From positions 24,939-88,938 of the IMG/VR virus record IMGVR_UViG_3300030419_004440: 64,000 bases of DNA; one strand, given 5' to 3'. Every line of letters begins with the position of its first letter. The first letter of the stretch is position 1. The stretch is from a virus. The notes below the pieces were generated by a model, which was not told the origin of the DNA, did not search any database, and saw only the letters and a list, made by a program, of their open reading frames with translations. Positions 15,268 to 62,279 of this stretch are shown piece after piece. A program made the position numbers and the translations under genes.

Positions 15268-15268
15268 T

Positions 15269-16915: not shown

Positions 16916-16946
16916 TTCCCTTCGACCTACAATATAAGGGGTAGGT

Positions 16947-17813
16947 ATGAACATACAAGAAGAGATAGATTTACTAAGCGAAAAGGCTAGACAGCAAAAT
17001 AAAAACAAAACACTGGTAATTCCTGATGGAACTTATCGGCTAAGTAAACCTCTAGTAATAACCGGAGGCGTGAGTGTTGTCAGCGAGGGAAAAGGCAGAC
17101 GTTCAGTCAGGCTTATCTTTATTGGGATGAAAGATGGAGATACTCTAGTCACCGTTAAGGGAAACAATGGGGGCATAATTGACGGGCTCAATATAAAATG
17201 CTTTGATGACGTAGATAACATAACCGGTCTACTTAGCGAAAACTGCTCATCAGCAACATTCTCCAATCTAGACATAGAACTACAATGTGGTTATGACTGT
17301 CTTGGAATTAAACACTTACGCAATGGCAAGCTAGGAGAGTCCTGCATCTACGAAAAGTTTGACATAAGGTCAGACGGAGGTTGTGTAGAAATACAAGGGG
17401 GCGACAATAATGTATTTAGAGATTTTGATTGTCGTGCAGGGACTAAAGTAAAGAATAGCATATCAGCTATATTTAGATTTGCGGAAAACTCTGTTCCGCA
17501 CCATGTCAGGATTGGCCCCGGATCAGGACAAAAAGGCAAACACGCATACTACTGCAACTCTGTGTCAGACTCTGTTTCTGGCGGCGGTATTTTGTTTGAC
17601 TCTTATAGGTGGGAACAACCATCAACCAAGGAAACCACAGCCTTTGTGCACACTCCAAAAAGAAAAGGCGGCAAACTTGGACACGTTACAGAAAGACTCA
17701 CGTTCATTGCGTGTCGATCTTCTAGGGTAAAGACAGCTATCAAAGTGACAAACACTCTTCAGGCGAGGTTTATTGGTAGTTTTTTAGACGGTAAAAAAGA
17801 TATAGAAAGGTGA
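16947..17813 (+). CDS. Right-handed beta-helix (pectate-lyase-like) protein
   Basis: The sequence starts with an IPDGTYRLSKPLVITGGV-type segment typical of pectate-lyase-like and tailspike folds, where a first strand precedes the helix. Short repeating turns with N, G and D follow (GGIIDGLNI, CSSATFSNLDIE, VEIQGGDNNVFRDFD), consistent with beta-helix coils over residues about 20-200. There is no signal peptide. In phages this fold is common in tailspikes and depolymerases that bind or cut polysaccharide. At 288 aa this one is short for a complete tailspike. No catalytic residues can be assigned. Confidence 0.7.
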   Translation: MNIQEEIDLLSEKARQQNKNKTLVIPDGTYRLSKPLVITGGVSVVSEGKGRRSVRLIFIGMKDGDTLVTVKGNNGGIIDGLNIKCFDDVDNITGLLSENCSSATFSNLDIELQCGYDCLGIKHLRNGKLGESCIYEKFDIRSDGGCVEIQGGDNNVFRDFDCRAGTKVKNSISAIFRFAENSVPHHVRIGPGSGQKGKHAYYCNSVSDSVSGGGILFDSYRWEQPSTKETTAFVHTPKRKGGKLGHVTERLTFIACRSSRVKTAIKVTNTLQARFIGSFLDGKKDIER

Positions 17814-37622: not shown

Positions 37623-37940
37623 TTATTCCTTATCCAGACATCCGAAGTCAAATTGGTTTACTCTAAACGTAATCAGCGTATCCTCTTCAGGCTCCATGTT
37701 CTTTGCTGAAGCGGTAACTGTCATCTTCATGCCAGACTTTCCTAGTTTGGCAATGGTTCTTCCCCCACTATCCCAAGCTCTAAGTCTGAGGAAGGTGGGA
37801 TATCTCTTCTTTTCACCCCTTTTGTTTCTGACGTATTCGTAAACGGTTAGGGTAAACTCGCAATATTCTGCACCGCTATCTTCATCTACGTCAATCTCTG
37901 GGTCACCATATAGGTATCCTGTAAACGTACAGTTGTTCAT
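37623..37940 (-). CDS. ssb: SSB-like OB-fold protein
   Basis: The sequence starts MNNCTFTGYLYGDPEI, matching the first strand of SSB OB folds, and continues with YCEFTLTVYEYVRN, an L-R-x-W strand (FLRLRAWDSGGRTI) and a C-terminal EED-T-x-I-x-FRVN-x-F segment. The 105-aa length is short; there is no acidic DDDIPF-type tail, which most cellular SSBs use to bind partners. It would coat single strands during phage replication. It lies directly after the polymerase genes. Confidence 0.75.
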   Translation of the reverse strand: MNNCTFTGYLYGDPEIDVDEDSGAEYCEFTLTVYEYVRNKRGEKKRYPTFLRLRAWDSGGRTIAKLGKSGMKMTVTASAKNMEPEEDTLITFRVNQFDFGCLDKE

Positions 37941-38021: not shown

Positions 38022-39587
38022 TTATATTTCGTGCACCTTACTTACAATGAATGAGTTATCCCTCTCGACCTCTCCGCAAAATAAAAGATTGTTTCCTTCG
38101 TATAGCACATATTGGTATTTTTCTCTTGCCTCTGGAAAAATTACGACGCTATCTAAAGAACAAGTTGTGTCCTCGATGGTAAGAAACGCCATTAGTTTTC
38201 CTTTAGTTTTCCCTCTCTTGACCTTGTATGTGTTCATCCTGTTTATATTGGCTGCTATACATATATCTTTACCTGTTTTGCCGTTAAGAACATCTTTGCA
38301 GTAGGTGTTCGCTGAAGACGTGTCCGAAGATTCTACTTTTGATAACGATATTGGGCAACCTAGGAACTTATTCTCCTGCTCAATGATCCAAGCTGGGTCA
38401 TCGGACAGGTCGTACGGTGGAGATCTAAGCATCTCAACTTCATTAAGTACAATCTGACTTCTATTTGTGTTACTTGTTCCTCCTCCAAGTTTTTTTGTTG
38501 GTGCCAAATCAGCAAAGCAATCTTGTAACGTTTTCCATTTCTTCTTCGGGTAGTTTGTCACAACCCATTTTAATTCAGCTTTTGTAAGCTCTCTGAATAT
38601 TAAGTATTCATACAGAGCCTTGTTTCTTGTTACCCCCGTAGATTTAGTGGAAAAAAAACCGATTGACGCAAGAGCCTTAAACGCTGTTAAGTTTATTTTT
38701 GTTGATAACGTCGTTAAAACATCCATCCAGCTAAACTTTGAAGGGTCTTTTCCGGTCTCTTCAGATGCTTCTAGGATAGCTTTTATAGCCTTGTCTCCGG
38801 TCACACCGGTTAAACCTTTAATGTCTTTAACACCAAAATAAATTCCATCATCTGCTATTCTAAATTTTTTACTATGAGAGGATAGCTTGGGGATTTTTAC
38901 GTCTATGCCAAACAATTTAGCTTCATTTACTAGTTCATAGACTTCTTGGTGTGGATCTTGTTTTTCATTCGAGAAGTATAGATAAGACAGAAAGAATTCC
39001 TTGACGTGATTTGCTTTGTACCAAGCAGACCAATACGAGTCGACGGCATAAGCAACTGCATGTGATTTGTTAAACGAGTATCTTGAGGATTTTTCGATCC
39101 AGCCAAATATCTCAAGGGCTGTATCCTCATCAACGGTTCCAACATTTTTGCAGCCCGCTATGAAATCCTCTTTAATCTTCGCCATAAGGTCTGCTTTTTT
39201 CTTTCCGATAGCCTTACGTAGATCGTCAGCCTTTTTAAGGTCAAACCCCGCTAGCTTTTGTGCTATACGCATGGATTGTTCTTGGTACACTAGAACGCCA
39301 TAGGTTGGCTTTAGTATATCCTCAAGAGACTCATGTAAATAAGAAACCTCTTCAATTTTATGCTTCCTGTCTACAAATCTTTTGGTCATTGATTTTCCAT
39401 CAATAATTGCCTTGAGGCATCCCGGCCTAATTAAGGCTATAAGTGCGGCCAGTTCTTCTATATTCTCTGGCTGTAATTTTTTAGACCAGCTTCTACCAAG
39501 GTTGCTTTCAAGCTGAAAGACCCCCTTAGTCTTCCCCTCTTTAAAAAGCTCCCAAGTTTTTTCATCTTTATAATCAATGTTAGACAT
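38022..39587 (-). CDS. dnaE: DNA polymerase III alpha, C-terminal part (split gene)
   Basis: The protein corresponds to DnaE from just after the third catalytic Asp to the C-terminus. KTKGVFQLES (near residue 20), LIRPGCLKAIIDGKSM, TYGVLVYQEQSMRIAQKLAG and DDLRKAIGKKK (about 110-160) are typical palm, fingers and thumb motifs. The end (CIAANINRMNTYKVKRGK onward, about 435-521) is the OB fold. The ATG at 39587 overlaps the exonuclease stop by 8 nt; longer starts lie inside the exonuclease gene. It must work together with the N-terminal piece at 40251-41873. Confidence 0.9.
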   Translation of the reverse strand: MSNIDYKDEKTWELFKEGKTKGVFQLESNLGRSWSKKLQPENIEELAALIALIRPGCLKAIIDGKSMTKRFVDRKHKIEEVSYLHESLEDILKPTYGVLVYQEQSMRIAQKLAGFDLKKADDLRKAIGKKKADLMAKIKEDFIAGCKNVGTVDEDTALEIFGWIEKSSRYSFNKSHAVAYAVDSYWSAWYKANHVKEFFLSYLYFSNEKQDPHQEVYELVNEAKLFGIDVKIPKLSSHSKKFRIADDGIYFGVKDIKGLTGVTGDKAIKAILEASEETGKDPSKFSWMDVLTTLSTKINLTAFKALASIGFFSTKSTGVTRNKALYEYLIFRELTKAELKWVVTNYPKKKWKTLQDCFADLAPTKKLGGGTSNTNRSQIVLNEVEMLRSPPYDLSDDPAWIIEQENKFLGCPISLSKVESSDTSSANTYCKDVLNGKTGKDICIAANINRMNTYKVKRGKTKGKLMAFLTIEDTTCSLDSVVIFPEAREKYQYVLYEGNNLLFCGEVERDNSFIVSKVHEI

Positions 39588-40254
39588 ATAGTTTTCCATC
39601 TGCGAAAGCTTTTTCAAATTTCATGTTGCGATAAACTGCCCGTCTGGACTTTTGTAGTTTGATAAAGATATTTGCCGTATCCTTTACGTCTTGCAACGCG
39701 TCGTGTGCGTTTTCTGAAGACAGACCCATACGCTCTCTTAATGAGTCCATACTAATTGATTTAACGGCTGGGTCGCCTTCTGTCCAAAGCCATACGTCGT
39801 CCATAACATCAATTTTATATATCTGGTGGAACAGCTTCTGGCATTGGCGTTTATCGTCCCAAGGGCCGTATTCGTTGCATAGACGGTTGACGATATGCAT
39901 ATCGTACCCTATGATATTAAAGCCTGCTGGGATGGGTGCGAAATAAGGTGTTCCCTTCCAGTTGTATTTGTTAACAAAAGTACAGAATTTTTTCCAAACA
40001 CCTTTTGGCAACGGTGCTTTGGCAAGCTTCGATCTCGTTTGACCAGTCACCTTTAAGGCCCCCTCCTCAATTGGATCGACACCCGCTGCGATTGCTTTAT
40101 CATCGTCTAGGATTGGACGCATCATACTATTGAACTCCCCTTTTAGCTTGAAGTTTCTTCCGTCTAGTGCTATCGCTGCAATCTGTGTCGGCTGACACCT
40201 CATGGGATTTCTGCCGCCTGTTTCAAAGTCAAATACTATGATATCACGATTCAT
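39580..40254 (-). CDS. DEDDh 3'-5' exonuclease between the polymerase halves
   Basis: The N-terminal motif DFETGGRNP (Exo I, with D-x-E), a middle FNIIGYDMHIVNRL (Exo II Asp) and HDALQD (Exo III, H-x4-D, near residue 194) define a DnaQ/DEDDh proofreading-type exonuclease. The gene overlaps the N-terminal polymerase stop by 4 nt (ATGA) and the C-terminal piece by 8 nt, so all three are translated together. It probably supplies proofreading to the split polymerase. Fold and motifs are seen; the partnership is inferred. Confidence 0.85.
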   Translation of the reverse strand: MNRDIIVFDFETGGRNPMRCQPTQIAAIALDGRNFKLKGEFNSMMRPILDDDKAIAAGVDPIEEGALKVTGQTRSKLAKAPLPKGVWKKFCTFVNKYNWKGTPYFAPIPAGFNIIGYDMHIVNRLCNEYGPWDDKRQCQKLFHQIYKIDVMDDVWLWTEGDPAVKSISMDSLRERMGLSSENAHDALQDVKDTANIFIKLQKSRRAVYRNMKFEKAFADGKLYV

Positions 40255-41873
40255 ACTAACTCCTTAATCATCATTAGTTTATCTAAAAGATTAATGCCTA
40301 AAACATCAAACTTCACATGTCCGAGAGCCTCTAGGTCGGCCATTTCAAGGCCAGCGATTTTTTCTGTTCCGCTTTTAGGGTTAACCATGGGGCAAACTTT
40401 GTACAATTCGTCCGCTGAAATAACTACCCCAGCAGCGTGCTTTCCTTGGGTTTTAAATGTTCCCTCTATATTAATGGCCTGCTTAAAAAATTCCGCATAG
40501 TCACCGTCCAGTTCACCATTGTCATTTATAAAACAATAGTCCCTGAGTTCATCCGCATTATTAATAAGAGACCATCTAATAATTGATCTATCTTCCTCGT
40601 CCATCTCTGCGAGCTGGTCAGATATTGAAGCTTCGTCTGGTATTGATTTGGTAATCTCGTTCATCTCACTAAATCCGCAGGCACCACTCACACGCAAAAC
40701 CTCTTTTAAGGCACTTCTACCCTGTAGCCTTCCGAAGGTTATCATCTGGCTAACATTATTGTTTCCGTATTTATCTTTGAGGTAAGTAATTATTTCGTCA
40801 CGTTTCCCACCCGGAACATCTAGATCAATATCTGGAAGAGATATGTGGTCCTCTGTATTTCTACCGGCATTGTAAAATCTTTCAAAGAGAAGGTCATATT
40901 CAATAGGGTCAATTTGGGTAATTCCGATAAGATATGATATCAGGCACCCAGCCGCAGACCCTCTACCCGGACCCACCATCCACCCTTGTGCGGTGGCATA
41001 TTTTATGATGTCTCTTACAATCAAGAAATATCCAAAGAGTTTGGCCTCTTCAATAACTTTAAACTCTTCCTCGAACCTTTCTCCATAGACCTTTTTCTCT
41101 TCTTGCTTTGTAATTTTGTCTGCAAGAAGTTTTCTCCACCCGTCTCTGGCTAATTCTCTAAGGTAGTTCTTTTGGGAATCTCCGTTAGGTGTTTCAAACC
41201 TCGGAAGTATAGGCTGGCTCAATATGTTGTAGCATTCGCACTTATCGTATATTTCCTTAAAAAGATGAAGTTTGTTGTCGTTGATTATGACTTCACCAAT
41301 TTCGGTTTTATTTTTTAGGTAAAAGTCGTTGGATTCAAAAAACACATGGTTGCTGACATCTTCCCCGTTTTTTATAGATTTGCTGAGTTTTGGCAATGTC
41401 GTTTTCATGCTCGAACACAAAATAATTCTGTGCAGCTCTGCGTCTTCTTTGTTTGTGTAGTAAGTGTCCATGAAAGCTTCGCTTTTTTCATAGAAGTCTT
41501 TCCCCTTGATTGGAGACTGGGATTCACTTGACGCAACTGAAATTAAATTACCAGACTTGGTTATGGCAAGCAATGTATTGGAATCTAAATTTCCGTCGCT
41601 GTCTATAGAAGAGACAAGCTCGATTAGATTAAGCCAGCCATCTTTGTTTTTAGCAAACAGAGAAAATTCGTCAAAAGAGCAGCCAATAATAGGCTTGATA
41701 TTGTTTGCCACACAAGCTTGATAAAAAGAAACGGCACCGGAGATTGACTTATAGTCCGCTATACCGCAAGCTGGGTAAAAATTTTCTGAGCATTTTTTGG
41801 CGAGCTGTTTTGGCTTAGAGAAGCCACGCTGTAATGAGTAATGTGTATAGTTGCAGATTGGGAACCAGTCCAT
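40251..41873 (-). CDS. dnaE: DNA polymerase III alpha, N-terminal part (split gene)
   Basis: This corresponds to DnaE PHP and catalytic palm. LPDIDLDVPGGKRDEI near residue 342 carries the first two catalytic Asp residues and HVKFDVLGI near residue 523 the third. WMVGPGRGSAAGCLISYLIG is a classical DnaE motif. The protein ends 15 residues after the third Asp, where E. coli DnaE has a linker. The N-terminal PHP motif reads CNYTHYSL in place of the HxH metal pair, so PHP exonuclease activity is probably lost. AAGGA precedes the ATG. Confidence 0.9.
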   Translation of the reverse strand: MDWFPICNYTHYSLQRGFSKPKQLAKKCSENFYPACGIADYKSISGAVSFYQACVANNIKPIIGCSFDEFSLFAKNKDGWLNLIELVSSIDSDGNLDSNTLLAITKSGNLISVASSESQSPIKGKDFYEKSEAFMDTYYTNKEDAELHRIILCSSMKTTLPKLSKSIKNGEDVSNHVFFESNDFYLKNKTEIGEVIINDNKLHLFKEIYDKCECYNILSQPILPRFETPNGDSQKNYLRELARDGWRKLLADKITKQEEKKVYGERFEEEFKVIEEAKLFGYFLIVRDIIKYATAQGWMVGPGRGSAAGCLISYLIGITQIDPIEYDLLFERFYNAGRNTEDHISLPDIDLDVPGGKRDEIITYLKDKYGNNNVSQMITFGRLQGRSALKEVLRVSGACGFSEMNEITKSIPDEASISDQLAEMDEEDRSIIRWSLINNADELRDYCFINDNGELDGDYAEFFKQAINIEGTFKTQGKHAAGVVISADELYKVCPMVNPKSGTEKIAGLEMADLEALGHVKFDVLGINLLDKLMMIKELV

Positions 41874-41910
41874 TTTCTATCCTTGTTCAACGCAATTAAA
41901 TTCAATGTTT

Positions 41911-42968: not shown

Positions 42969-44183
42969 TTAGGAAAATAGTTCGGAAATTACTTTTCCTG
43001 AATTAGCTATTTTCATAGGTCGTCCGCTATTACTTGAGAAAGTAGTGCTTAACGAAATGCCGAGTGCCTTACAAATCGAGGCCATGACATCTTGGGAGGA
43101 ATAAGGTTCTGTCTCCACTCTGGTGCCATCTTCGTTTGTTGCACCAACGGCGATACCGCCATTCATACCAGCACCACCAACGACAACGCTCCAACTTCGT
43201 GCCCAGTGGTCACGACCGGCGTTTTGGTTGATACGTGGAGTTCGACTAAATTCACCCATCCATATGATAGCTGTGTCCTCCAATAACCCTCTTTGCTCTA
43301 AGTCCTCTACTAACGCACTCATACCTTGATCTAGCATGGGTAACTTTGTATCTCTTAAGGTTGGGAAGATGTTCTGGTGATTGTCCCAGCCCCCTAGTCC
43401 AACTTCTATAAACGGAACACCGACCTCTACTAAACGTCTAGCCATTAGGCACCCCTTACCAAAGCTGTTGTCTCCGTATCTTTCTCTTACATCTTCTGGT
43501 TCGTTTGCTACCTTCATCGCGTCCATCTCTTTACTAGTAAGAACGTTGAAGGTCTTTCTCAATACTTTTTGGTGTTCTTTGGCCAGCGATCCCCTATTAC
43601 TGTTTATAAAATTGGTTTCCATCATATCTAGAACATGTGCCCTTTGATAAAATCTTTGATCTATTTTCATATCTAGATTTCTAATTCTACCGTCGCTATT
43701 GACAGAGAAGGGGTTGTATTGAGCACCTAAAAATCCAGCACCTTGGCTGGGTCCGTTTACGGATACAAATTGTGGAATTAAAAGATCTTGTTTTTCTAGC
43801 TGCTTAGAAATAACCGAGCCATAGCTTGGATGAACCATGCTTGGATTAGGTACATATCCGGTGTGCATATAGTAGCGTCCACGCATATGGTCTGCTTCAC
43901 GGGTGCTCATGCTGCGAATGATTGCCATGTTGTGCATTTGCTTTGCCATTAGTGGCATATGTTCGCAAATCTCTACGTCGCCAGTAGTGCTTATAGGCTT
44001 AAATGGACCTCCGGTTGGGGCGTCTGGTTTTAAATCCCAGATATCCATAGTAGAAGGGCCACCTCCCATCCATAAGAGAATGGCCGACTTCCCATTTTTC
44101 TTTAGCTCTTGTTGGTTGGCTTTTAGCGTTTGCGTCAAAGCAGCAATTCCAGCTAGTGATGATAAAAACTCTCTCCTTTTCAT
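42969..44183 (-). CDS. DUF1501 protein 1, Tat-exported
   Basis: The N-terminus MKRREFLSSLAGIAAL is a twin-arginine-type signal. MGGGPSTMDIWDLKP, GGWDNHQN and GEFSRTPRINQNAGRDHW follow in order, the characteristic DUF1501 motifs. The family is related to alkaline-phosphatase/sulfatase-like proteins and is abundant in Planctomycetes, with unknown biochemical function. The length of 404 aa is normal. The catalytic-type His and Asp residues in the GWDNH and RDHW segments are retained. It is one of three paralogues here, an unusual cargo for a phage. Confidence 0.9.
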   Translation of the reverse strand: MKRREFLSSLAGIAALTQTLKANQQELKKNGKSAILLWMGGGPSTMDIWDLKPDAPTGGPFKPISTTGDVEICEHMPLMAKQMHNMAIIRSMSTREADHMRGRYYMHTGYVPNPSMVHPSYGSVISKQLEKQDLLIPQFVSVNGPSQGAGFLGAQYNPFSVNSDGRIRNLDMKIDQRFYQRAHVLDMMETNFINSNRGSLAKEHQKVLRKTFNVLTSKEMDAMKVANEPEDVRERYGDNSFGKGCLMARRLVEVGVPFIEVGLGGWDNHQNIFPTLRDTKLPMLDQGMSALVEDLEQRGLLEDTAIIWMGEFSRTPRINQNAGRDHWARSWSVVVGGAGMNGGIAVGATNEDGTRVETEPYSSQDVMASICKALGISLSTTFSSNSGRPMKIANSGKVISELFS

Positions 44184-45285: not shown

Positions 45286-46542
45286 TTAAATAATTAAATC
45301 TTGAATGACTTGTCCACCGTCAACAATTTCAATTGGACGATCACCGGGAGCCATTAGCTCTTTATCAGCAACAATACCCAATCTGTTATAGATGGTAGCT
45401 GCCCAGTCCTCTATGCTGACTGGGTTTTGGTCGGGGTCACTAGCGGTTGCGTTGGACGTACCGTAGGTAATACCCCTTTTGATCCCACCGCCAGCCATAA
45501 CAGTACTAAATACCTTTGGCCAGTGGTCTCTTCCTGCGTTAGCGTTGATTTTTGGAGTTCTGCCAAACTCTGAGACGACGCAAACCAATGTGGAATCTAA
45601 TAATCCGCGATCATCCAAGTCTTCGATAAGGGTTGCAAAGCCTTGATCAAAAGCCGGTAGCTGACTTTTCATGCCATTAGATATGTTATCGTGCATATCC
45701 CAGCCGCCGTAGGTGAGTGTTACGAATCTTGTTCCAAACTCTACTAGTCTGCGGGCCAGCAGCATTCTAGCTCCCGCAGTATTTCTTCCATACCTGTCTC
45801 TTAAGGCCGCTGGTTCTTTTTCTATATCAAATGCTTCTCTTGCATTTTGATCTCCTATGAGACTATACGCCCTCTGATAAAAAGAGTTCATAGCGACTAA
45901 AGAATCTGCATCTTCTTTCTTGTTAAATTCAGTGTTCACTATATCTAGAACACGTTGCCTTCTGCTAAATCTTGCGTCTGGAACTGGAACCTTTAAGTCT
46001 CTGACTTCAAAATTTTCGCTAGCGGGGTCGGAGCCTAGTCCGAACCCAGAATATGAACTGCTTAGATATCCAGTACCTGCAAATTCATTAGGCTGGTTTG
46101 GGATGCAGACATACGGAGGAAGGTTTTTACGCGGTCCGAACTCATGTGCAACCACTGAACCCATAGATGGGTATTGAAGGGCTGGGCTAGGTCTATAGCC
46201 AGTAAACATATTGTGTGTACCACGCTCATGGGCTGCTTCTCCGTGTGTCATGCTACGGATAATAGCAATCTTGTCTGTTATCTTCGCAGTTTTACCTAGT
46301 AGCTCTCCAAGACGAATGCCCGGAACATTGGTTTCAATACTACCAAGTGGCCCACGATATTCTAAAGGGGCGAATGGCTTAGGATCAAATGTTTCCTGAT
46401 GAGCCATTCCCCCCGGAAGGTAAATGAAAATAATGCTCTTAGCTGGCCCCTCCTTGCTATCATAATGTTTTTGATCTGCTCTAGCAAGAGACACACCAAG
46501 ACTACCTAAGATTCCAGCTTGTAAAAAAGACCTTCTTTTCAT
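45286..46542 (-). CDS. DUF1501 protein 2, Tat-exported
   Basis: The ATG at 46542 (MKRRSFLQAGILGSLGVSLA) gives a twin-arginine signal and has AAGGAAC upstream; a 13-residue longer frame is unlikely. IYLPGGMAHQETFDPKP replaces the usual GGP-S segment, followed by GGWDMHDN and GEFGRTPKINANAGRDHW-type motifs. At 418 aa the protein is complete. Compared with the other two copies, the first motif reads PGGMAH, so the residue at the possible nucleophile site may differ. Function of the family is unknown. Confidence 0.9.
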   Translation of the reverse strand: MKRRSFLQAGILGSLGVSLARADQKHYDSKEGPAKSIIFIYLPGGMAHQETFDPKPFAPLEYRGPLGSIETNVPGIRLGELLGKTAKITDKIAIIRSMTHGEAAHERGTHNMFTGYRPSPALQYPSMGSVVAHEFGPRKNLPPYVCIPNQPNEFAGTGYLSSSYSGFGLGSDPASENFEVRDLKVPVPDARFSRRQRVLDIVNTEFNKKEDADSLVAMNSFYQRAYSLIGDQNAREAFDIEKEPAALRDRYGRNTAGARMLLARRLVEFGTRFVTLTYGGWDMHDNISNGMKSQLPAFDQGFATLIEDLDDRGLLDSTLVCVVSEFGRTPKINANAGRDHWPKVFSTVMAGGGIKRGITYGTSNATASDPDQNPVSIEDWAATIYNRLGIVADKELMAPGDRPIEIVDGGQVIQDLII

Positions 46543-46556
46543 TATTTGTTCCTTGT

Positions 46557-46697
46557 TTAGAATAAAAATCTCGACCACCACCCTTGGGATGCCCCCAAGA
46601 AGTAGAGTCCCACTAAAATACCTCCAACTAAGGCGGTTCGTCTAACCAGCCTATTTTCTCTCACAAAATTAGCAATCGGACCATTAAATAATGGCAT
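46557..46697 (-). CDS. Small membrane protein, 46 aa
   Basis: This short gene lies between two DUF1501 genes. It starts ATG at 46697 with a good GGAGG ribosome binding site 6 nt upstream and ends at TAA 46557. The protein reads MPLFNGPIANFVRENR then a hydrophobic stretch (ALVGGILVGLYFLGAS, about residues 22-37) and a Trp-rich end. A single transmembrane segment is likely. Its coupling to the DUF1501 genes suggests a membrane partner, which is inference. Confidence 0.65.
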   Translation of the reverse strand: MPLFNGPIANFVRENRLVRRTALVGGILVGLYFLGASQGWWSRFLF

Positions 46698-46714: not shown

Positions 46715-47977
46715 TTAAAGAATTACTTTCGCTTCACCCTCCAACAAATATCTGGGACGACCAGACATGTCGGTACGTTGAATTGCTCCGTCAATTCCAA
46801 AATGGTCAAACAGCGTTGCTTGCAAATCAAGTGGCCCCACTGGGTTTTCTATGGGGCTGTATGATCTATCTGCCTCACCAATCGTTCTTCCTGATTGATA
46901 TCTTCCGCCAGCCATCATCATCGGCGTAATTGCGGGCCAATGGTCACGTCCAGCGTTTGCGTTTATTTTAGTTCTACCAAATTCTCCCGTAACGACCAAG
47001 AGGACTTTTTCATTTAATCCACGATCCCATAAGTCTTGTAGAAACCCCCCTATTGCTTTATCAATGGGTGCGACCCTTTTCTTTAGTGCATCTGAAATAT
47101 TGCTATGCATATCCCATCCGCCATAATGCAGGGTCACAAACTTGGTTCCATGTTCTACCAACCTTCTCGCCAACATCATCTGTTCGCCAATGTCGTTAGC
47201 TTTTTCAGATCCGTAAAGAGCTTTAGTTGCTTCTGACTCTTTATCTGTAGCAAAGGCGTCTTTAGCAGAGCCTAGAATAACATCGTAGGCCTGACCTTTA
47301 TAAAAACCAACTGACTCAGCACTTTTGCCAGATATATCACTAGCGGCTGAACCTAAAGCACTCAGAAGTTGCTTTCTATTGTTGAATCTATCGAGTTGGA
47401 TTCTTGGTGTTAGGTTGTCTTTGTTAGAGGGGTCAAATGGCTTATATGCCCCGCCTAACCAAGCCCCTTCATCTCCCTCAATCTTTCCTTGCTTTACATA
47501 AGATGGCACCCCGTTTTGAGGGTGGTTAGTTCCGTAAACAGCAGATATCAGAGAACCAAAAGAGGGGTATTTGGCAGTAGACGTAGTAGTCCTTTCTGGA
47601 TTATAGTGTCCAGTCATCATAAAGTGAGTGCCCTGCCTGTGAGATGAGTCCTTATGACTAAAGGAATTTACAACATTTAGCTTTGAAGTATGTTTAGAGA
47701 GTTCGTACCAATCTTCCCCTAGCGTAATATTTGTTTTGGGGTCGTGCTTGGCACCATTTACTGGTTGCCACTCTGTTGGGACAGTGTCTTTTGGGGCATG
47801 AAAAGTTTCAAATTGTGTTGGACCTCCCCCAAGCCACACCCAAACAACTGATTTATCGCCGTAACTTTGTACTGTATTTGCAGCGAAAGCGGCGTCAGAC
47901 AGACCAGCGGCGGTCATTCCTGCTCCAATAGATCCAATCCTAAGAAAATCCCTTCTGTTAAAGTAAAAATCTAACAA
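46715..47977 (-). CDS. DUF1501 protein 3, Tat-exported
   Basis: The start is TTG with a GGAG ribosome binding site; the upstream ATGs are out of frame. The N-terminus FNRRDFLRIGSIGAGM is a strong twin-arginine signal, close to the S/T-RR-x-FLK rule. VWLGGGPTQFETFHAPKD, YGGWDMHSN and GEFGRTKINANAGRDHW are the family motifs; the third lacks the usual Pro after Thr. At 420 aa it is complete. Three diverged copies in one place suggest old duplication or repeated acquisition. Confidence 0.9.
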   Translation of the reverse strand: MLDFYFNRRDFLRIGSIGAGMTAAGLSDAAFAANTVQSYGDKSVVWVWLGGGPTQFETFHAPKDTVPTEWQPVNGAKHDPKTNITLGEDWYELSKHTSKLNVVNSFSHKDSSHRQGTHFMMTGHYNPERTTTSTAKYPSFGSLISAVYGTNHPQNGVPSYVKQGKIEGDEGAWLGGAYKPFDPSNKDNLTPRIQLDRFNNRKQLLSALGSAASDISGKSAESVGFYKGQAYDVILGSAKDAFATDKESEATKALYGSEKANDIGEQMMLARRLVEHGTKFVTLHYGGWDMHSNISDALKKRVAPIDKAIGGFLQDLWDRGLNEKVLLVVTGEFGRTKINANAGRDHWPAITPMMMAGGRYQSGRTIGEADRSYSPIENPVGPLDLQATLFDHFGIDGAIQRTDMSGRPRYLLEGEAKVIL

Positions 47978-50964: not shown

Positions 50965-51170
50965 TACTTTTTCTCTTTTTTTGGGGGCATGTATCCAAAA
51001 ATATGCCCACAGGTAAACCCAGTAGCAAAAGCAATAAATGGTGCTTCTAGGGCAGAGTTTTGCATAAACCTACTAACACTTAGTGGTATCCCGCCGTGGA
51101 ATACCGCCAATAGATCATACATACCTAAAGCGATAACTGAGAACGTTACTATTTTTGCTGTTAATGACAT
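50964..51170 (-). CDS. Small membrane protein, 68 aa
   Basis: The start ATG overlaps the guaC stop. Two hydrophobic segments are visible (KIVTFSVIALGMYDLLAVF and APFIAFATGFTCGHIFGY), ending in a Lys-rich tail (PPKKEKK). That fits a small integral membrane protein with a cytoplasmic basic tail. It is coupled to the 53-aa gene. A role in lysis or superinfection exclusion is possible but not supported beyond its type. Confidence 0.65.
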   Translation of the reverse strand: MSLTAKIVTFSVIALGMYDLLAVFHGGIPLSVSRFMQNSALEAPFIAFATGFTCGHIFGYMPPKKEKK

Positions 51171-52234
51171 TACAATTTCTCCACTGTTTTATCATGATGA
51201 ACTCTGTTTACTCGCACGAATCGTGCGGTTTTGTTAAAATCTTTTAACGACGTAGCACCGGTATAAGCACAGGCACTACGCACACCTCCAAGGATGTCAT
51301 TCACTACGACCTCTGCCTTTCCTTTGTAACAAATTTTTTGCACTCTACCCTCACTAGATCGGTAATTTCTTAGTCCGTCTCCATGTTTTTCCTGAGCTTT
51401 TTTAGAGGACATGCCATAAAATGTCATATATTTAGTACCGGCGTGGTCCACCCATTCACCCTCGCACTCCTTAGTGCCCGCCAACATACCTCCAAGCATA
51501 ACAAAGTCAGCACCGGCTGCATAGGCTTTGGCTACATCTGCTGGAAAGCGACAGCCCCCATCTGCACAAATCAACCCCAACCTACCAGAATCAGAGCGTA
51601 GTCCATGAGCAACGTGGGAACATTCAGCAATAGCAGAAAGCTGTGGATAACCAACGCCAGCTTTGAGTCTTGTTGTGCAGGCAGAGCCGGGGCCAATACC
51701 AACTTTAACAATGTCAACCTCTCCATGAATAATTAATTCCGAAACCATTTCTGGTGTAGCTACGTTGCCAGCCATAATTATGGAGTCTGGAAACTCTAGC
51801 CTAACCTCGCTACACCAATCGACAAATTTTGCGGTATAGCCATTTGCAATATCAATACATATGTTAGGCGAGAAGTTTAAGTTTCTTTCAATTTCAAACA
51901 GTTTATCTAAGTCTCGATCCCAGTCCATGCCAATGCTAATCCACACATTGGGCTCCACGTTATAGTGCTTAAAGTATGCCTCTATCTCCTCTGCGTCGTA
52001 ATGCTTATGGAGACAGGTAATCGCTTGGTGTTTATTTAATGCTGACCCCATTTTAAATGTGCCGGTTGTATCCATGTTTGCGGCCATCAGGGGCATACCA
52101 CGCCACTCCTTGGGAGAATGGTAAAACTTAAAAGCTCTTTTTAATTCTACCTGCTTCCGACTCGCAGCCACCGACCTTTGTGGTACGAGTAAGACATCGT
52201 CAAAGTCCAACTTAATTTCATTATCAATCTTCAT
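51170..52234 (-). CDS. guaC: GMP reductase
   Basis: The sequence follows bacterial GMP reductase along its length: LDFDDVLLVPQRS at the start, AANMDTTGTF, GIGPGSACTTR with the catalytic Cys (near residue 184), SDGG-like ICADGGC, ADFVMLGGMLAG and TFYGMSS. No CBS domains are present, which separates it from IMP dehydrogenase. It converts GMP to IMP and so can move purines from G to A nucleotides. The ATG at 52234 has the better-spaced GAGG site; one six-nt-longer start is possible. A phage copy is unusual. Confidence 0.9.
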   Translation of the reverse strand: MKIDNEIKLDFDDVLLVPQRSVAASRKQVELKRAFKFYHSPKEWRGMPLMAANMDTTGTFKMGSALNKHQAITCLHKHYDAEEIEAYFKHYNVEPNVWISIGMDWDRDLDKLFEIERNLNFSPNICIDIANGYTAKFVDWCSEVRLEFPDSIIMAGNVATPEMVSELIIHGEVDIVKVGIGPGSACTTRLKAGVGYPQLSAIAECSHVAHGLRSDSGRLGLICADGGCRFPADVAKAYAAGADFVMLGGMLAGTKECEGEWVDHAGTKYMTFYGMSSKKAQEKHGDGLRNYRSSEGRVQKICYKGKAEVVVNDILGGVRSACAYTGATSLKDFNKTARFVRVNRVHHDKTVEKL

Positions 52235-53672
52235 CTGCATCTACCTCGAATGGGAGTTCTGAACCTTCAATAGCCCCGTCCTGTGGGGTTGCACGAAATT
52301 CATCTCTAGTTCTTAACTCGTTCAATTGTGAGTGGCTTCCGATCATATCCATGTTGATGTAGTTGCCGTCCATTAATCCTGCACCGTGCCTAGCTTTTAG
52401 GGTTACGAGTTTTCTATTTCCTGCGTTTGGGCCGTCCTCAGCAAGCTCCTCCGCTGATTTTAATTTAAATATGGAGAATGAGGTGCACAGCCAAATAAGC
52501 CTGTCAGATCCGCTCACAGCGTCTGTAGACTCCTTAGTGATCCCATCTCTATTAAGTTGTACGAAGGACAAGCAGGGAAAATCAAGCTTAACCGCCAAGT
52601 TATGCAAGTTCGTAATTTGAAATCCGAGTGCTTGATACTCTTGGATATTATTGGTTATAGATGTGGAGGACATTAGCTTGAGATAGTCGTAGACAACTAG
52701 GCAGTCGTTTGTCTTTCCGTATTCGTCTTGCCCAACATCTTGGATAATCCAACGCTTAATGGTGTTCATGATAGTCTCAAACGGAGCACCTGCAACACTT
52801 ACGTATGTGTAGGGTATGTCTCTAATTTCTTCTATAGCCGCTTGAACTCTAATGATCTTCTCGTCGTCTTCGGCAAACTGTCCAGTAGCCACTTCACTAA
52901 TAGGAACGCCACTAATATTAGAAATGATTCTATTAAGATGGTCGTCTTTGGACATTTCAGTGTCCAGCATTAAAACTGGTATACCTTTACGTGCATTGTG
53001 CAATGCTACATTGTCAGCGAAAACAGACTTACCCACACCGGGGCGAGCAGAAACGAGATCCACACACTTTCTACGAAGCCCACCGCCAACTACCGTATCA
53101 AATCTTGGAAAGCCACTTGACAATCCTATCTGATCACATTTATTTTCAATAAGGAATTCCAAGTACTCGTCGATATCGTCCCCGAGTTTTTCGGGTTTTT
53201 GACCAACGTCATCTTCCCTCAGAAACTCAGTTATTGGAGCCTCTATAAGATTAACAATCTCGTCAATAGTCTCGTCGCCATTGATTTCTTCAATATCTTT
53301 GCTTATCTTATTGGCTATGCGTTTAGCTTTTCTGGCCAACTCAAACTTTTTTATCTGAGCCGCAAAGTGCGGGACGTTTTCCTTCTTGACGGGGTATTCC
53401 ATCAAGTCCCGTATGTATTCAAGCTCTTGGTTTGTCTGAACTATTTCGGACAAGTTGAGCTGCTCCGAGGCAGACAAAATAGCCGGTAAATCTACCTGTG
53501 CTTCACTCTGTAGAATCTTCTCTACGCACTTATAAATCACCTGATTGTTTCTGTGGGAAAAACTGTTGTGGGTTAGGAAATCTGATATCTCTACGTATGA
53601 TTCTAATCCATACGCAAACAAACCTGCCAACACCGCACGTTCCGAACCTACGTCCGAAAGGTTTGAATTCAT
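52224..53672 (-). CDS. dnaB: DnaB-type replicative helicase
   Basis: The N-terminal domain begins DVGSERAVLAGLF, as in DnaB. ARPGVGKSVFADN (near residue 214) is Walker A, VPVLMLDTEMS follows and the Walker B/arginine region continues with CLVVYDYLKLM and LSFVQLNRDG. The ATG at 53672 has an AGGAAG site; a 13-residue longer frame overlaps the upstream gene. It is the replication fork helicase, acting with the primase downstream. Confidence 0.9.
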   Translation of the reverse strand: MNSNLSDVGSERAVLAGLFAYGLESYVEISDFLTHNSFSHRNNQVIYKCVEKILQSEAQVDLPAILSASEQLNLSEIVQTNQELEYIRDLMEYPVKKENVPHFAAQIKKFELARKAKRIANKISKDIEEINGDETIDEIVNLIEAPITEFLREDDVGQKPEKLGDDIDEYLEFLIENKCDQIGLSSGFPRFDTVVGGGLRRKCVDLVSARPGVGKSVFADNVALHNARKGIPVLMLDTEMSKDDHLNRIISNISGVPISEVATGQFAEDDEKIIRVQAAIEEIRDIPYTYVSVAGAPFETIMNTIKRWIIQDVGQDEYGKTNDCLVVYDYLKLMSSTSITNNIQEYQALGFQITNLHNLAVKLDFPCLSFVQLNRDGITKESTDAVSGSDRLIWLCTSFSIFKLKSAEELAEDGPNAGNRKLVTLKARHGAGLMDGNYINMDMIGSHSQLNELRTRDEFRATPQDGAIEGSELPFEVDADED

Positions 53673-53673
53673 A

Positions 53674-54087
53674 TTATCTTCCTGTGCAACGATTACATCT
53701 GATGTATTCACCGTAAATTAGATTCTCATTCATGGCAAATGTTTTGCCGCAAATGTGACATTCAACTTTTTTCTTGTTGGGTTTACCCCTTCTTCTAGGG
53801 GTTCGGGTTTTTTCAAGTTTCTCAAAATTAGCAGAATCGTCTTTCATTTCACCGCTATCAACCCATTCGTTTTTTCTAAATTTAACCACCTTTTTATTAC
53901 TTTCTTTTTTATTTCTAGTGACAGAAAAATCCTCGTTAACAACGTTTTCAGGAGGAGAGGAAACCGCTTCCTCTTTAACTGTAGATGCGTCACTCTTTAC
54001 ATTACTATTCAGTATTCCTTGAATAAGCTCTTGTTTTTGTTCTGGTGTAAGGGACTCTAAAAGTGTTTTTACAATGTCATCACTCAT
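53674..54087 (-). CDS. Small zinc-finger protein, 137 aa
   Basis: The first 30 residues look like a helical domain (TPEQKQELIQGILN). A long Lys/Ser/Glu-rich linker follows. The C-terminus carries CHICGKTF and CNRC, a four-Cys zinc site (near residues 112-134). It overlaps its upstream neighbour by 4 nt. It may act as a DNA-binding or adapter protein for the helicase gene immediately downstream, but this is inferred from position. Confidence 0.6.
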   Translation of the reverse strand: MSDDIVKTLLESLTPEQKQELIQGILNSNVKSDASTVKEEAVSSPPENVVNEDFSVTRNKKESNKKVVKFRKNEWVDSGEMKDDSANFEKLEKTRTPRRRGKPNKKKVECHICGKTFAMNENLIYGEYIRCNRCTGR

Positions 54088-58984: not shown

Positions 58985-60054
58985 AGTTTCATGTCTCCAA
59001 AGTCCATGTCCTCTAAGTCATTTTTACTCGCACCAATCTTGTAACTGGTAATTTCGTGTTCCTGTGGTGCAACCTGAACACTTTCGCTATGCATCCACGC
59101 CTGAGTCCATCCAGCTATTGGGTTTTTACCCACGCTTTCATACGGTAGCCCTATCATTTTTCTTCTGCTCATACATAACCAATCAATGTACTGATGGAGA
59201 ACCGTCTCATTCAGCCCAAGCATAGAGCCGTCTTTAAACAGGTATGATGCCCATTGCTTTTCTTCGTTAGCTGCACTCTCAAACATCTCAACTGCCTTAT
59301 CTTCACACTCTTTGGCTATTTTTACAAACCCCTCGCTTTCTTCGCTTTGTAAAATCTTAAGTATCTCCTTGGTGTTCGTGAGATGAAGTGCCTCGTCTCT
59401 TTTTATAAGCTTGATTATATCCGCATTGCCAGCCATTTTTTTGTTTTCGGCAAACGCAAAAGAGCAGATGAAGGATACATAAAATCTTACAGCCTCAAGG
59501 ATATTTATACTCATGACCGTCATGTATATCTGCTTCTTTATATCGGACAATTTATTTTTATCGCACGCCATTCCCATTAAGTTATTATAATCACGTATCG
59601 CACTGTTTGCCCGTTTCATTATCTGTTTGTCTTGATAGATGCCCTCGAAGACTTCTGAGCTATCTGCGTATACATTTTGAATGATATATGAGTATGATTG
59701 GCTATGAATCTTTTCAAAAAACTGCCACGTCATAAGGCAGGCTTCTAGCTCTGTGTTTGTGACAAACTCTAGCAAAGTTGGTACGCCACGACATATTACA
59801 CTGTCCAGCATGGTTTGATACTTTAGGTTTGATGTAAAGATAAACTTTTCATTGTCCGACATCTCCTTAAAGTCGCCACGGTCTTTCTTTAGCTCGATTT
59901 CTTCTGGCCTCCAGAAGTTCATCATCTGCTTGCTATCAAGATCCTTAAATATTGGGTACTTGAGAACATCGTAACGTTGAACACCTAAGTCCTTACCCAA
60001 AAACAAGGGTTGCGTCATTGGGTCTATATTTTTTGTATTAAAGATAGTTTTCAT
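58981..60054 (-). CDS. nrdB: Class Ia ribonucleotide reductase small subunit
   Basis: The iron and radical site is complete in sequence: MLDSV (Asp), ELEACLMTWQFFEKIHSQSY (Glu, Glu-x2-His and the radical Tyr), later SINILEAVRFYVSF and DEALHLTNT (Glu/His pairs). The length is as usual. It generates the tyrosyl radical used by NrdA. The ATG at 60054 overlaps the nrdA stop (ATGA) and is properly spaced from a GGAG; three residues upstream another ATG is too close to it. This makes it a tightly coupled pair. Confidence 0.95.
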   Translation of the reverse strand: MKTIFNTKNIDPMTQPLFLGKDLGVQRYDVLKYPIFKDLDSKQMMNFWRPEEIELKKDRGDFKEMSDNEKFIFTSNLKYQTMLDSVICRGVPTLLEFVTNTELEACLMTWQFFEKIHSQSYSYIIQNVYADSSEVFEGIYQDKQIMKRANSAIRDYNNLMGMACDKNKLSDIKKQIYMTVMSINILEAVRFYVSFICSFAFAENKKMAGNADIIKLIKRDEALHLTNTKEILKILQSEESEGFVKIAKECEDKAVEMFESAANEEKQWASYLFKDGSMLGLNETVLHQYIDWLCMSRRKMIGLPYESVGKNPIAGWTQAWMHSESVQVAPQEHEITSYKIGASKNDLEDMDFGDMKL

Positions 60055-62279
60055 ATTGCACATGCTCCAGAGTCGCAGTTCATGCCCTTCTCGGTATCGC
60101 CATCTCCGTCTGGCGTGTTGGCGTAATAAAAATTCTTTAGTCCGTATTTATACCCGTAAATTTGATCCTTGATCAGAGTGCTGAGAGGTATATTTCCATC
60201 GTCATAATGGTCATAGTTATAGTAAAGGTTTGTGCTCATGCTCATATCTACAAATTTCTGAATAACTGCCGCTATATTCATTATAGCGGTATTGCTGGGC
60301 ATATCCCAAGCCAAAGTATAATATTTTTTTCTCATATGGTAATTTGGCACCAGTTGTTTTAATATTCCGTTTTTCGCCTTCTTGTGTATTAATAGGCTTC
60401 TTACGGGTTCTATGCCGTTTGTACTGTTCTGAATTACACTAGAGGATTCGCAGGGCATAATAGCAGATAAAGTAGAATGTCTCAGGCCGTATTTCTTGAT
60501 CCTTTTTCTTAGCCCCTTCCAGTCCATATTATAATTTGGTTCTATTAATTCGTCAACAGTTTTTTTGTACCAATCAATTGGCAATAAACCTTGGGCGTAT
60601 TTAGTGTCCTCAAACTTTTCGCAAGCACCCTTTTCTTTTGCTAGATCGCAAGAGGCGTTAATTAGATTCCATTGTATCTGCTCCATCGTTTCGTGTACTA
60701 ATTCTAGTGCGGCTTCGTCTTCATACTTTAGTTTATTTTTGGCTAAAAAACCAGCTAGGTTGGTAATTCCTACGCCAAGAGATCTCCTGTTTTTTGTGAA
60801 GTTCTCACCAGCTAAAACTGGGTAGGACTGATAGTCAATGACCGCTTCTAATGTGCGAACAGCCATGCGGCACGCATCTTCTATGTCTTTTTCGTTTCCT
60901 AATTCTAGCAAATTAAGTGCGGAAAGGATACAAATTCCAATCTCTCCTTCTGGGTCATCAATTGATTTTATGGGTTTTGTTGGATGTATAATTTCTTGGC
61001 ATAGATTACTCATGTATGCTGGTATACTCCAAGATCCATTTTCATTCGCCGTGTCAATATTCATACTGTAAATACGACCCGTTTCAAGTCGTTCACGAGC
61101 AAAGATTTCAGCGAGTTTGCGTGCAGAAACTTTCTTTTTGAACTTTAAAGACCTAGCGTTTTCGTACTTAAGATAAAGTTCTTCAAATTTTTCGTTGTTC
61201 CCAAAAGCTTCATATAAACCCTTGGCTTCTTGCGGACTAAAAAGGGTTACATCTTCATTTTTAATTAGTCTGTCGTAAAAAAGTTTGCAGAATTGTATCG
61301 AATAATCTAGTTTGCGTACACGGTTATCGTCCGTTCCCGCATTATTCTTAAGAACCATCACATCTTCTATCTCGTAGTGCCAGAATGGGATGTGTACTGT
61401 AGCAGAGCCTCCACGTAGGCCGTTCTGAGATGTTGACTTAACGGCTGATTCAAAGTTTTTTAGATAGGGAATGAGTCCTGTGTGAATAACTTCACCCCCA
61501 CGGATAGGTGAATTGATCGGACGCATACGCCCTATGTTCAGACCAATACCTGCACGTCTTGCTGTATACTTACCAACCGCGTGAATAGAGGAGAAGATAC
61601 CGTCGAGGTTGTCATCAACATCAACCAAAACACAGCTTGCAAACTGTCTGATGTTGGTTCTAACTCCGGCCATGATAGGTGTCGGAAGATTAATTTTAAA
61701 AGTGGAATAACAATCATATGCCTTTTTCACTTCTTCTAAAGTACTAAACAGACACATAGCTATACTCATATACGCAAACTGGGGTGTTTCGTGTATTACT
61801 CCAGTGCTTCTGTTCTTGACTAAGTATTTGTCTATTAACTGTTGTAGGCCAGCATAAGTAAACAGGTCGTCCCTTTCATGGTTCATGTATTTTGAAAAGG
61901 TGTCTATATCCTCATCTGACCACTTCTCTAATATTATGGGGTCGTAGATTGCGTTATCTACATTTCTCTGCAAGAAGGTCAAAAAGTCTGTTGGCCTGTC
62001 TCCGTACCCCCAGACTTCTTTTCTGAGCTGCATGTTAAGGAGTCTAGCTGCCACATATTGGTAATTAGGACTGGCGGTGGAGATTAAGTCGTTTGCTGAT
62101 TTAATCAATATTTGATGTATTTCAACACTTGAAATTCCATCGTATAACGACAGATTCGCATTCATAACTATGTCAGAAAACGAAACACCATTTATATCTC
62201 TGGTTGCCCACTGCACTACCTTGTGAATTTTTTCGACTGAGAAATCTTCAGTTTCTCCATTTCTCTTGGAAACTTGCAT
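60051..62279 (-). CDS. nrdA: Class Ia ribonucleotide reductase large subunit
   Basis: The N-terminus (VSKRNGETEDFSVEKIHK) is an ATP-cone-type regulatory domain. The catalytic region contains NLCQEI (the Asn-x-Cys-x-Glu active-site triad) and FASCVLVDVDD (with the redox Cys). The C-terminus GMNCDSGACAI carries the C-x4-C reducing pair that thioredoxin or glutaredoxin recharges. At 742 aa it is complete. It has its own near-perfect promoter and would raise the dNTP supply during infection. Confidence 0.95.
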   Translation of the reverse strand: MQVSKRNGETEDFSVEKIHKVVQWATRDINGVSFSDIVMNANLSLYDGISSVEIHQILIKSANDLISTASPNYQYVAARLLNMQLRKEVWGYGDRPTDFLTFLQRNVDNAIYDPIILEKWSDEDIDTFSKYMNHERDDLFTYAGLQQLIDKYLVKNRSTGVIHETPQFAYMSIAMCLFSTLEEVKKAYDCYSTFKINLPTPIMAGVRTNIRQFASCVLVDVDDNLDGIFSSIHAVGKYTARRAGIGLNIGRMRPINSPIRGGEVIHTGLIPYLKNFESAVKSTSQNGLRGGSATVHIPFWHYEIEDVMVLKNNAGTDDNRVRKLDYSIQFCKLFYDRLIKNEDVTLFSPQEAKGLYEAFGNNEKFEELYLKYENARSLKFKKKVSARKLAEIFARERLETGRIYSMNIDTANENGSWSIPAYMSNLCQEIIHPTKPIKSIDDPEGEIGICILSALNLLELGNEKDIEDACRMAVRTLEAVIDYQSYPVLAGENFTKNRRSLGVGITNLAGFLAKNKLKYEDEAALELVHETMEQIQWNLINASCDLAKEKGACEKFEDTKYAQGLLPIDWYKKTVDELIEPNYNMDWKGLRKRIKKYGLRHSTLSAIMPCESSSVIQNSTNGIEPVRSLLIHKKAKNGILKQLVPNYHMRKKYYTLAWDMPSNTAIMNIAAVIQKFVDMSMSTNLYYNYDHYDDGNIPLSTLIKDQIYGYKYGLKNFYYANTPDGDGDTEKGMNCDSGACAI

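What the first reader, a model, noticed from the sequence alone, without database searches (positions are those of the whole stretch)
38022..41873. DNA polymerase III alpha split in two around an exonuclease gene
The DnaE chain is encoded as an N-terminal piece (PHP plus all three catalytic Asp) and a C-terminal piece (fingers, thumb, OB fold). A DEDDh exonuclease gene lies between them and overlaps both. The break falls at a natural linker just after the third Asp. I know of no described arrangement of this kind. The pieces must assemble as a three-part proofreading polymerase.
Basis: partly seen in the sequence, partly recalled or inferred. Interest (0 to 1): 0.8.

Follow-up and report, generated by a model that had tools for sequence, protein, structure and literature searches.

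The report
Phage DNA polymerase encoded in pieces
A large, uncultured group of bacterial viruses makes its only recognised DNA-copying enzyme as two separate proteins, with the gene for a probable error-correcting enzyme sitting exactly between the two halves, so a replicative enzyme that is normally one chain must here be put together from parts.

Summary
On the minus strand, DnaE-N (PHP, palm, thumb, three catalytic Asp), a DEDDh exonuclease and DnaE-C (fingers, HhH, OB) follow each other with overlapping ends. It is not an assembly error: the same N-exo-C order occurs in 205 viral contigs with distinct exonuclease sequences, with no intact version among the viral loci fetched. The three proteins are co-inherited and under purifying selection. 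In 20 contigs (own one included) this is the only recognisable DNA polymerase.

The break lies at the palm/fingers boundary (E. coli alpha about 572/588). No intein or intron lies there. By contrast, five relatives carry inteins elsewhere inside DnaE-C (four of them split inteins), which shows the check would have seen one. Both junctions are preferred sites of free-standing homing endonucleases, pointing to an ancient insertional split.

Best reading: a permanently split PolIII alpha, reassembled non-covalently, with its proofreading exonuclease co-translated from the middle. Assembly is inferred, not shown. Precedents exist: phage 25 43A/43B, Aeh1 NrdA, and the minimal split PolIII alpha of jumbo phages. 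The sole full-length PolIII alpha, fixed split, around its own exonuclease, appears undescribed in the papers searched.

The parts
40251..41873 (-). DnaE-N: 540-aa N-terminal part of PolIII alpha (degenerate PHP, palm, thumb; catalytic D348, D350, D523; C-terminus 17 aa after the third Asp)
   Evidence: AlphaFold pLDDT 90.8, matches E. coli alpha 2hnh with TMq 0.77
39580..40254 (-). DEDDh 3'-5' exonuclease (DnaQ-like), 224 aa, motif residues D9 E11 D118 H184 D189; conserved C-terminal tail KFEKAFADG
   Evidence: (phrog_192 DNA polymerase exonuclease subunit, 7e-27)
38022..39587 (-).
   Evidence: AlphaFold pLDDT 91.1, matches PolIII alpha 7pu7 TMq 0.68 and 3e0d 0.65
40251..40254 (-). ATGA overlap: start of exonuclease on stop of DnaE-N
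40260..40265 (-). Shine-Dalgarno AAGGAG for the exonuclease, embedded in the last codons of DnaE-N
   Evidence: SD-like sequence in 60 of 61 relatives with a tight N/exo junction
39580..39587 (-). ATGTCTAA overlap of exonuclease stop and DnaE-C start (8-nt overlap is the commonest among relatives)
41880..41884 (-). Shine-Dalgarno AAGGA upstream of DnaE-N
37623..37940 (-). SSB (OB-fold single-strand DNA-binding protein) gene directly downstream; a similar ORF (MNxCxFTGY start) lies at the same place in the seven relatives inspected

Best explanation
This is the replicative DNA polymerase operon of an uncultivated phage lineage in which C-family PolIII alpha (DnaE) is permanently encoded as two chains. 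The N chain holds PHP, palm and thumb with all three metal-binding Asp. The C chain holds fingers, HhH and OB fold. The two are translated separately (own Shine-Dalgarno and overlapping stop/start codons) and are thought to reassemble non-covalently at the palm/fingers interface. The DEDDh exonuclease made from the gene between them is the proofreading subunit, produced next to its partners by translational coupling. The split is a single ancient event at the base of the lineage, most probably left by insertion of a mobile homing-endonuclease cassette at a tolerated linker. The two junctions are still preferred homing sites today. Shown: gene structure, conservation, single origin, selection, lack of splicing elements, absence of another recognisable polymerase. 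Inferred: non-covalent assembly, polymerase activity, proofreading role, and the origin by a homing endonuclease.
For: Same N-exo-C order in 205 viral contigs with distinct exonuclease sequences, no intact copy among 450 viral loci. Pairwise identity goes down to 43/47/37% for N/exo/C. N-C distance correlation r=0.915, N-exo 0.834, exo-C 0.884, 0 of 999 permutations as high. Split clade monophyletic in both the N tree and the C tree, ultrafast bootstrap 100 and 96. Amino-acid change far below synonymous change in all three genes. Catalytic Asp invariant in 45 diverse N chains, and finger motifs in 45 C chains. Each chain folds confidently by itself and matches the corresponding part of PolIII alpha. 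The N chain stops 12-22 aa after the FDxLG motif and the C chain starts usually 16-27 aa before TKGVFQ in nearly all of the full-length cases, leaving no room for an intein. No Rfam intron in the window or 11 loci. Nineteen related contigs of 104-174 kb have exactly one PolIII palm domain and no PolA or PolB. EndoVII-type HNH genes: 23 of 24 sit at the exo/C junction; SLDRID-type HNH genes: 18 of 23 sit at the N/exo junction.
Against: No interaction, complex model or activity was tested, since only single chains can be folded here. The exonuclease could serve another process and be coupled only for expression. The related contigs' completeness is not known, so a second polymerase outside them or of an unrecognised kind is possible. 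No intact sister gene was found close to the clade, so the moment and agent of the split are inferred from present-day homing sites. No beta clamp was found in these contigs.
Confidence: 0.8

Rival explanations
1. The two pieces are rejoined by splicing: a split intein at protein level, or a group I/II intron at RNA level, with the exonuclease riding inside the element.
For: Inteins and introns in phage dnaE genes are common. In this very clade L029 has an intein in DnaE-C (RPG|C...HN|C), and L058, L277, L289 and L328 have a split intein at FNK|C...SN|SHA; in L058 a Vsr-like endonuclease gene lies between the intein halves. Enterococcus phage EF1 dnaE is broken around an annotated HNH gene while VRE9_1 is intact.
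Against: At the N|C break no intein motif is present, and the chains end within a few residues of the conserved motifs. Exo start and stop overlap both neighbours, leaving no intron sequence. Rfam gives no intron. The gap between N and C varies by up to 2.5 kb with unrelated genes.
Confidence: 0.04
2. The exonuclease is not the proofreading subunit but an unrelated DEDDh nuclease (for example RNase T-like, or one that degrades host DNA) that merely shares the operon; the polymerase is the two DnaE chains alone.
For: The exonuclease is only remotely similar to PolC-type exonuclease in solved structures (2p1j, 4.9e-4). Bacteroides phages carry a distant homologue near terminase and ligase genes, with no dnaE match in the neighbouring genes.
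Against: In all 205 contigs it lies between the polymerase halves, it is the best conserved of the three proteins, and it hits PHROG 192 'DNA polymerase exonuclease subunit'. In Pseudomonas phage F8 a 3'-5' exonuclease gene also overlaps the start of an intact dnaE. The PHP active site has decayed in the window lineage, which fits reliance on a separate exonuclease.
Confidence: 0.17
3. Assembly or sequencing artefact, or a broken and decaying gene backed by another polymerase.
For: The window is one metagenomic viral contig.
Against: The order recurs in 205 distinct contigs, all three genes are under purifying selection, and no other PolA, PolB or PolIII was found in 20 related records.
Confidence: 0.01
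4. N, exo and C are translated as one fused protein by programmed frameshifting or stop read-through at the overlaps.
For: The genes overlap by 4 and 8-20 nt in different frames.
Against: Exo has its own Shine-Dalgarno (60 of 61 tight junctions), and 126 of 188 relatives have 150 bp or more between N and exo, often with another gene there, so fusion cannot be general.
Confidence: 0.03
5. On the origin only: the split did not arise from a homing endonuclease. Recombination placed the exonuclease gene into dnaE directly, and the homing endonucleases came later to an already split site, as has been suggested for T4-like gene 43 of phage 25.
For: No member keeps a stage with an endonuclease but no exonuclease, and PMC2988022 describes the same ambiguity for phage 25 versus 44RR.
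Against: Two unrelated endonuclease families are each specific to one junction, with decayed remnants at N/exo, which shows that these sites attract such elements; but this does not date them before the split.
Confidence: 0.4

Closest known systems
Split PolIII alpha of group 2.2 jumbo phages (Iyer et al. 2021, PMC7824862)
   Same: C-family alpha in phages encoded as two standalone proteins thought to reconstitute one enzyme
   Different: There it is a minimal core without the other PolIII domains, split between NTP-binding and Mg/template-binding parts, encoded by distantly located genes, and accompanied by a family B polymerase. Here it has PHP to OB fold, is split at palm/fingers, is adjacent in one operon around an exonuclease, and is the only polymerase found
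Gene 43A/43B (family B polymerase) of Aeromonas phages 25 and 44RR (reviewed in PMC2988022)
   Same: Phage replicative polymerase split into two chains, with a homing endonuclease at the junction in phage 25; the products co-purify and are active
   Different: Other polymerase family; the intervening element is a parasite or untranslated sequence, not the polymerase's own proofreading-type exonuclease; described for a few phages
Split NrdA of phage Aeh1 (mobE insertion; PMC2988022)
   Same: Homing endonuclease insertion split an essential enzyme into two chains that form an active enzyme
   Different: Ribonucleotide reductase, one phage, endonuclease still in place
Cyanobacterial split-intein DnaE and 'fractured genes' with split inteins (Dassa et al. 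2009, known to me from memory and from citation in PMC6892783)
   Same: dnaE encoded as two genes; some members of the present clade (L058, L277, L289, L328) carry a split intein in DnaE-C very near the cyanobacterial insertion motif FNKSHS
   Different: Those halves are ligated by protein trans-splicing; the N|C break studied here has no intein and another position
Exonuclease-dnaE gene pair of Pbunavirus (Pseudomonas phage F8)
   Same: 3'-5' exonuclease gene overlapping the polymerase gene in one operon
   Different: dnaE is intact and the exonuclease lies upstream of it

Membership tests
C-family DNA polymerase III alpha (DnaE) | Palm with three catalytic Asp (PDxDxD and VKFDxLG) and PF07733/PF17657 domains | tested here: met
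   D348, D350, D523 invariant in 45 relatives
C-family DNA polymerase III alpha (DnaE) | Single polypeptide spanning palm and fingers | tested here: not met
   two ORFs in all 205 contigs; homologous by sequence and fold, so filed as a split variant of the family and not as an ordinary member
C-family DNA polymerase III alpha (DnaE) | Intact PHP metal-binding motif (HxH...DH), a feature of active PHP domains only | tested here: not met
   HLHxHSxYSLLDG/TDHG is replaced by CNYTHYSLQRG/ADYK in the window; intact in L228 and L240; PHP is inactive in many bacterial DnaE too, so not excluding
C-family DNA polymerase III alpha (DnaE) | Primer extension activity | not testable with these tools
   needs purified proteins
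DEDDh (DnaQ-like) proofreading exonuclease | Motifs DxE, D, HxxxxD | tested here: met
   D9, E11, D118, H184, D189; invariant in A2, checked in the divergent set A8
DEDDh (DnaQ-like) proofreading exonuclease | Binds and edits for the polymerase | not testable with these tools
   operon position and co-inheritance only
Split-intein dnaE / fractured gene | IntN at the end of the N piece and IntC at the start of the C piece | tested here: not met
   12-22 aa after FDxLG in nearly all cases and usually 16-27 aa before TKGVFQ, no intein motif; inteins are recognised elsewhere in the clade
Intron-interrupted dnaE (as suspected for Enterococcus phage EF1) | Group I/II intron RNA between the exons | tested here: not met
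   no Rfam match and no untranslated sequence between the ORFs in the window
Homing-endonuclease-split phage enzyme (Aeh1 NrdA, phage 25 gp43) | Homing endonuclease gene at the break | tested here: inconclusive
   absent in the window; present at one or other junction in a minority of relatives (about 32 of 210 at exo/C, about 15 of 210 at N/exo), with remnants
Homing-endonuclease-split phage enzyme (Aeh1 NrdA, phage 25 gp43) | Two chains co-purify and are active | not testable with these tools
   experiment proposed
Minimal split PolIII alpha of group 2.2 jumbo phages | Core-only alpha, unlinked genes, family B polymerase in the same phage | tested here: not met
   full PHP-to-OB set, linked genes, no PolB in 20 related records

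The most novel reading that the evidence does not exclude
The three gene products form an obligate ternary replicase in which the exonuclease, made between the two alpha halves on the same mRNA, is a structural bridge needed to assemble or hold the active site and not only a proofreader: a replicative polymerase whose catalytic centre comes from separately made chains joined through its own editing subunit.
Probability: 0.25. Interest if true: 0.85.

Novelty: new variant of a known kind. Interest (0 to 1): 0.63.

Why it matters
Bacterial replicative polymerases of family C are treated as indivisible catalytic chains, with split-intein DnaE as the exception that proves the need for ligation. 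Here a large and diverse phage lineage has apparently replicated for a long time with alpha permanently cut at the palm/fingers boundary and with no visible splicing. That gives a natural, testable split PolIII alpha, and it gives a case for asking how homing elements reshape essential enzymes and whether a proofreading subunit can become part of the scaffold. The same loci provide paired controls: N|C halves without inteins, and split inteins further down the same gene.

Tried and rejected
Assembly error: rejected, 205 distinct contigs. Second intact dnaE or another polymerase: none found in the own contig or 19 related records. Intron or intein at the junction: none. Isolated phages with the arrangement: none seen; best isolates 32% identical for N and intact where examined apart from the EF1 and Satyr breaks at another site, exonuclease only 8 distant hits. 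GTDB genomes: nothing above 39%, and 77 of 80 hits show an intact bacterial dnaE. Bacteroides phages with a distant exonuclease: neighbours are terminase and ligase, not DnaE. Searches for an intact viral sister with outlier members as query found only more of the same clade. Sliding clamp in related contigs: none with PF00712. Papers on the exonuclease-in-the-middle order: none found. A first profile (A6) contained a one-residue row by mistake and was replaced by A7. Locus L149 has stop codons inside the matched stretches and was left out of the alignments.
Full report
Observation. On the minus strand of the window three genes follow each other: DnaE-N 41873-40251, exonuclease 40254-39580, DnaE-C to 38022. 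DnaE-N matches PHP and the PolIII alpha catalytic domain, the middle gene RNase_T/DEDDh exonuclease, and DnaE-C the finger domain and HhH; PHROGs places both halves on one 1190-position polymerase family, N at 243-612 and C at 623-1055. The exonuclease start overlaps the DnaE-N stop (ATGA), with a Shine-Dalgarno AAGGAG coded in the last N residues (the only such string in the window, none in 100 shuffles). Its stop overlaps the DnaE-C start (ATGTCTAA from ATG 39587, or 20 nt from ATG 39599).

Where the break lies. Against E. coli alpha, DnaE-N aligns to residue 564 with eight more residues (about 572), and DnaE-C begins at about 588. From established knowledge of that structure (Lamers 2006: palm 271-432 and 511-560, thumb 433-510, fingers from 561) the cut is at the palm/fingers boundary. 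All three catalytic Asp are in the N chain and invariant in 45 diverse relatives. AlphaFold gives each chain alone a confident fold (N pLDDT 90.8, pTM 0.88; C pLDDT 91.1, pTM 0.81), and Foldseek matches each to PolIII alpha (N to 2hnh TMq 0.77; C to 7pu7 TMq 0.68). The C chain ends at the OB fold, without the tau-binding domain. The PHP active site is degenerate in the window and its near relatives but intact in the outlying members L228 and L240.

Not an artefact. A protein search in IMG/VR gave seven contigs with the same order; profile searches gave more. Counting distinct exonuclease sequences, 205 viral contigs have N-exo-C as separate ORFs, 25 are truncated, and none has N and C in one ORF, whereas 77 of 80 bacterial loci and 10 phage-database loci taken as controls show an intact gene with the same method. 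Limits: each scan keeps only the best 80 matches, so a more distant intact viral sister could be missed, and contigs from one population may differ by few bases.

Age and inheritance. Pairwise identity falls to 43, 47 and 37% for N, exonuclease and C. Distance matrices of the three correlate at 0.83-0.92 with no permutation as high, so the three travel together. In trees with bacterial and phage outgroups the split clade is monophyletic for N (support 100) and C (96), on long stems, and both have long-branched phage polymerases as sisters; the sister placement may be long-branch attraction. Amino-acid change is far below synonymous change for all three. The simplest history is one split at the root of the clade.

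It is the replicase, as far as can be seen. Nineteen related contigs of 104-174 kb and the own 88.9-kb contig each contain one PolIII palm domain and no family A or B polymerase. The window also encodes primase, DnaB-type helicase, UvsX-like recombinase and ribonucleotide reductase, and an SSB directly downstream of DnaE-C. No beta clamp was found.

No splicing at the break. The N chain ends 12-22 residues after FDxLG in nearly all cases, and the C chain starts usually 16-27 residues before TKGVFQ; together these roughly equal the intact linker, with no intein. Rfam finds no intron in the window or in 11 loci. The search can see such elements: L029 has an in-frame intein with HNH region in DnaE-C, and four contigs (L058, L277, L289, L328) have DnaE-C cut again by a split intein at FNK|C...SN|SHA, with a Vsr-like endonuclease gene between the intein halves in L058. 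In those phages alpha is encoded in three genes, two of which should be rejoined by trans-splicing while the N|C break should stay open.

Homing endonucleases at the joints. The N/exo and exo/C gaps range from overlaps to 2.5 kb. Among 210 contigs, exo/C holds EndoVII-type HNH genes in 22, other nucleases in about 10, and methyltransferases in some; N/exo holds SLDRID-type HNH genes in 11 plus other nucleases, and often a small conserved gene. Across these loci and their flanks (about 1.5 Mb, forward strand), 23 of 24 EndoVII-type genes sit at exo/C and 18 of 23 SLDRID-type genes at N/exo. Decayed remnants of the latter remain in L036, L044 and L076. So both joints are homing sites now. That the first split was made in this way is inference; the alternative, that the elements came to an already split gene, is open and is also discussed for T4-like gene 43 (PMC2988022).

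Mechanism. Most likely the two chains assemble at the palm/fingers boundary without a covalent bond, as 43A/43B of phage 25 and split NrdA of Aeh1 do (PMC2988022), and the exonuclease joins them as proofreader. Its gene position gives translational coupling and local co-production. The decay of the PHP site, the strong conservation of the exonuclease and the exonuclease-polymerase gene pair of phage F8 fit this. Whether the exonuclease also bridges the halves cannot be told.

Novelty. Split phage polymerases are a known kind: a minimal PolIII alpha in two unlinked genes beside a family B enzyme (PMC7824862), 43A/43B, and intein- or intron-split genes (PMC6892783; EF1; Satyr). New in what I could search is a PHP-to-OB PolIII alpha that is the only polymerase found, fixed in split form across a broad lineage, with its exonuclease gene in the break. 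Subscription papers were not searchable, so 'undescribed' is limited to the open library.

Noticed in passing
L058 (8241-11127), L277, L289, L328: DnaE-C: A split intein (FNK|CLxPxTVV... / ...SN|SHA) cuts DnaE-C into two further genes; in L058 a Vsr-like free-standing endonuclease gene lies between the intein halves. The site is only a few residues from the cyanobacterial DnaE split-intein site, as I recall it.
   Followed up: partly
L029 about 8510-9290: An in-frame intein with an HNH-like region is inserted in DnaE-C at RPG|C...HN|CLKS.
   Followed up: partly
window 42969-44183, 45286-46581, 46715-47977: Three DUF1501 paralogues in a phage genome; DUF1501 genes also occur in 9 of 19 related contigs. 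The first begins with a twin-arginine-like signal. Function in a phage unknown; perhaps a hint at hosts rich in DUF1501.
   Followed up: partly
L150-L165, between DnaE-N and the exonuclease (e.g. L150 5774-5995): A small gene of about 72-78 aa with no Pfam match sits between DnaE-N and the exonuclease in much of the clade (small ORFs at N/exo in 112 of 210 contigs); it might be a further polymerase-associated protein.
   Followed up: no
upstream flanks of the related loci; also L021, L060, L079 (N/exo) and L052, L106, L109 (exo/C): A PDDEXK-like family with the motif YDVKTKR has 89 hits upstream of dnaE among 210 loci and sometimes lies at either junction.
   Followed up: no
Enterococcus phage EF1 (L167 2763-6122); Lactobacillus phage Satyr (L168 3780-8686): dnaE broken just before the PDIDLD motif around an HNH gene (EF1) or a NUMOD3 gene (Satyr); probably introns, since VRE9_1 has an intact gene.
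   Followed up: partly
window 51170-52240, 52224-53711, 60051-62279: The phage carries IMPDH-like, DnaB-like and NrdA genes, the same gene kinds from which, as I recall, the environmental split inteins IMPDH-1, gp41-1 and NrdJ-1 were described; no intein was looked for here.
   Followed up: no
window 2840-17813: Very large + strand genes (1760 and 1510 aa among them); those tested (615, 1760, 1510 and 288 aa) have no PHROGs match, possibly virion proteins of a poorly described phage group.
   Followed up: no
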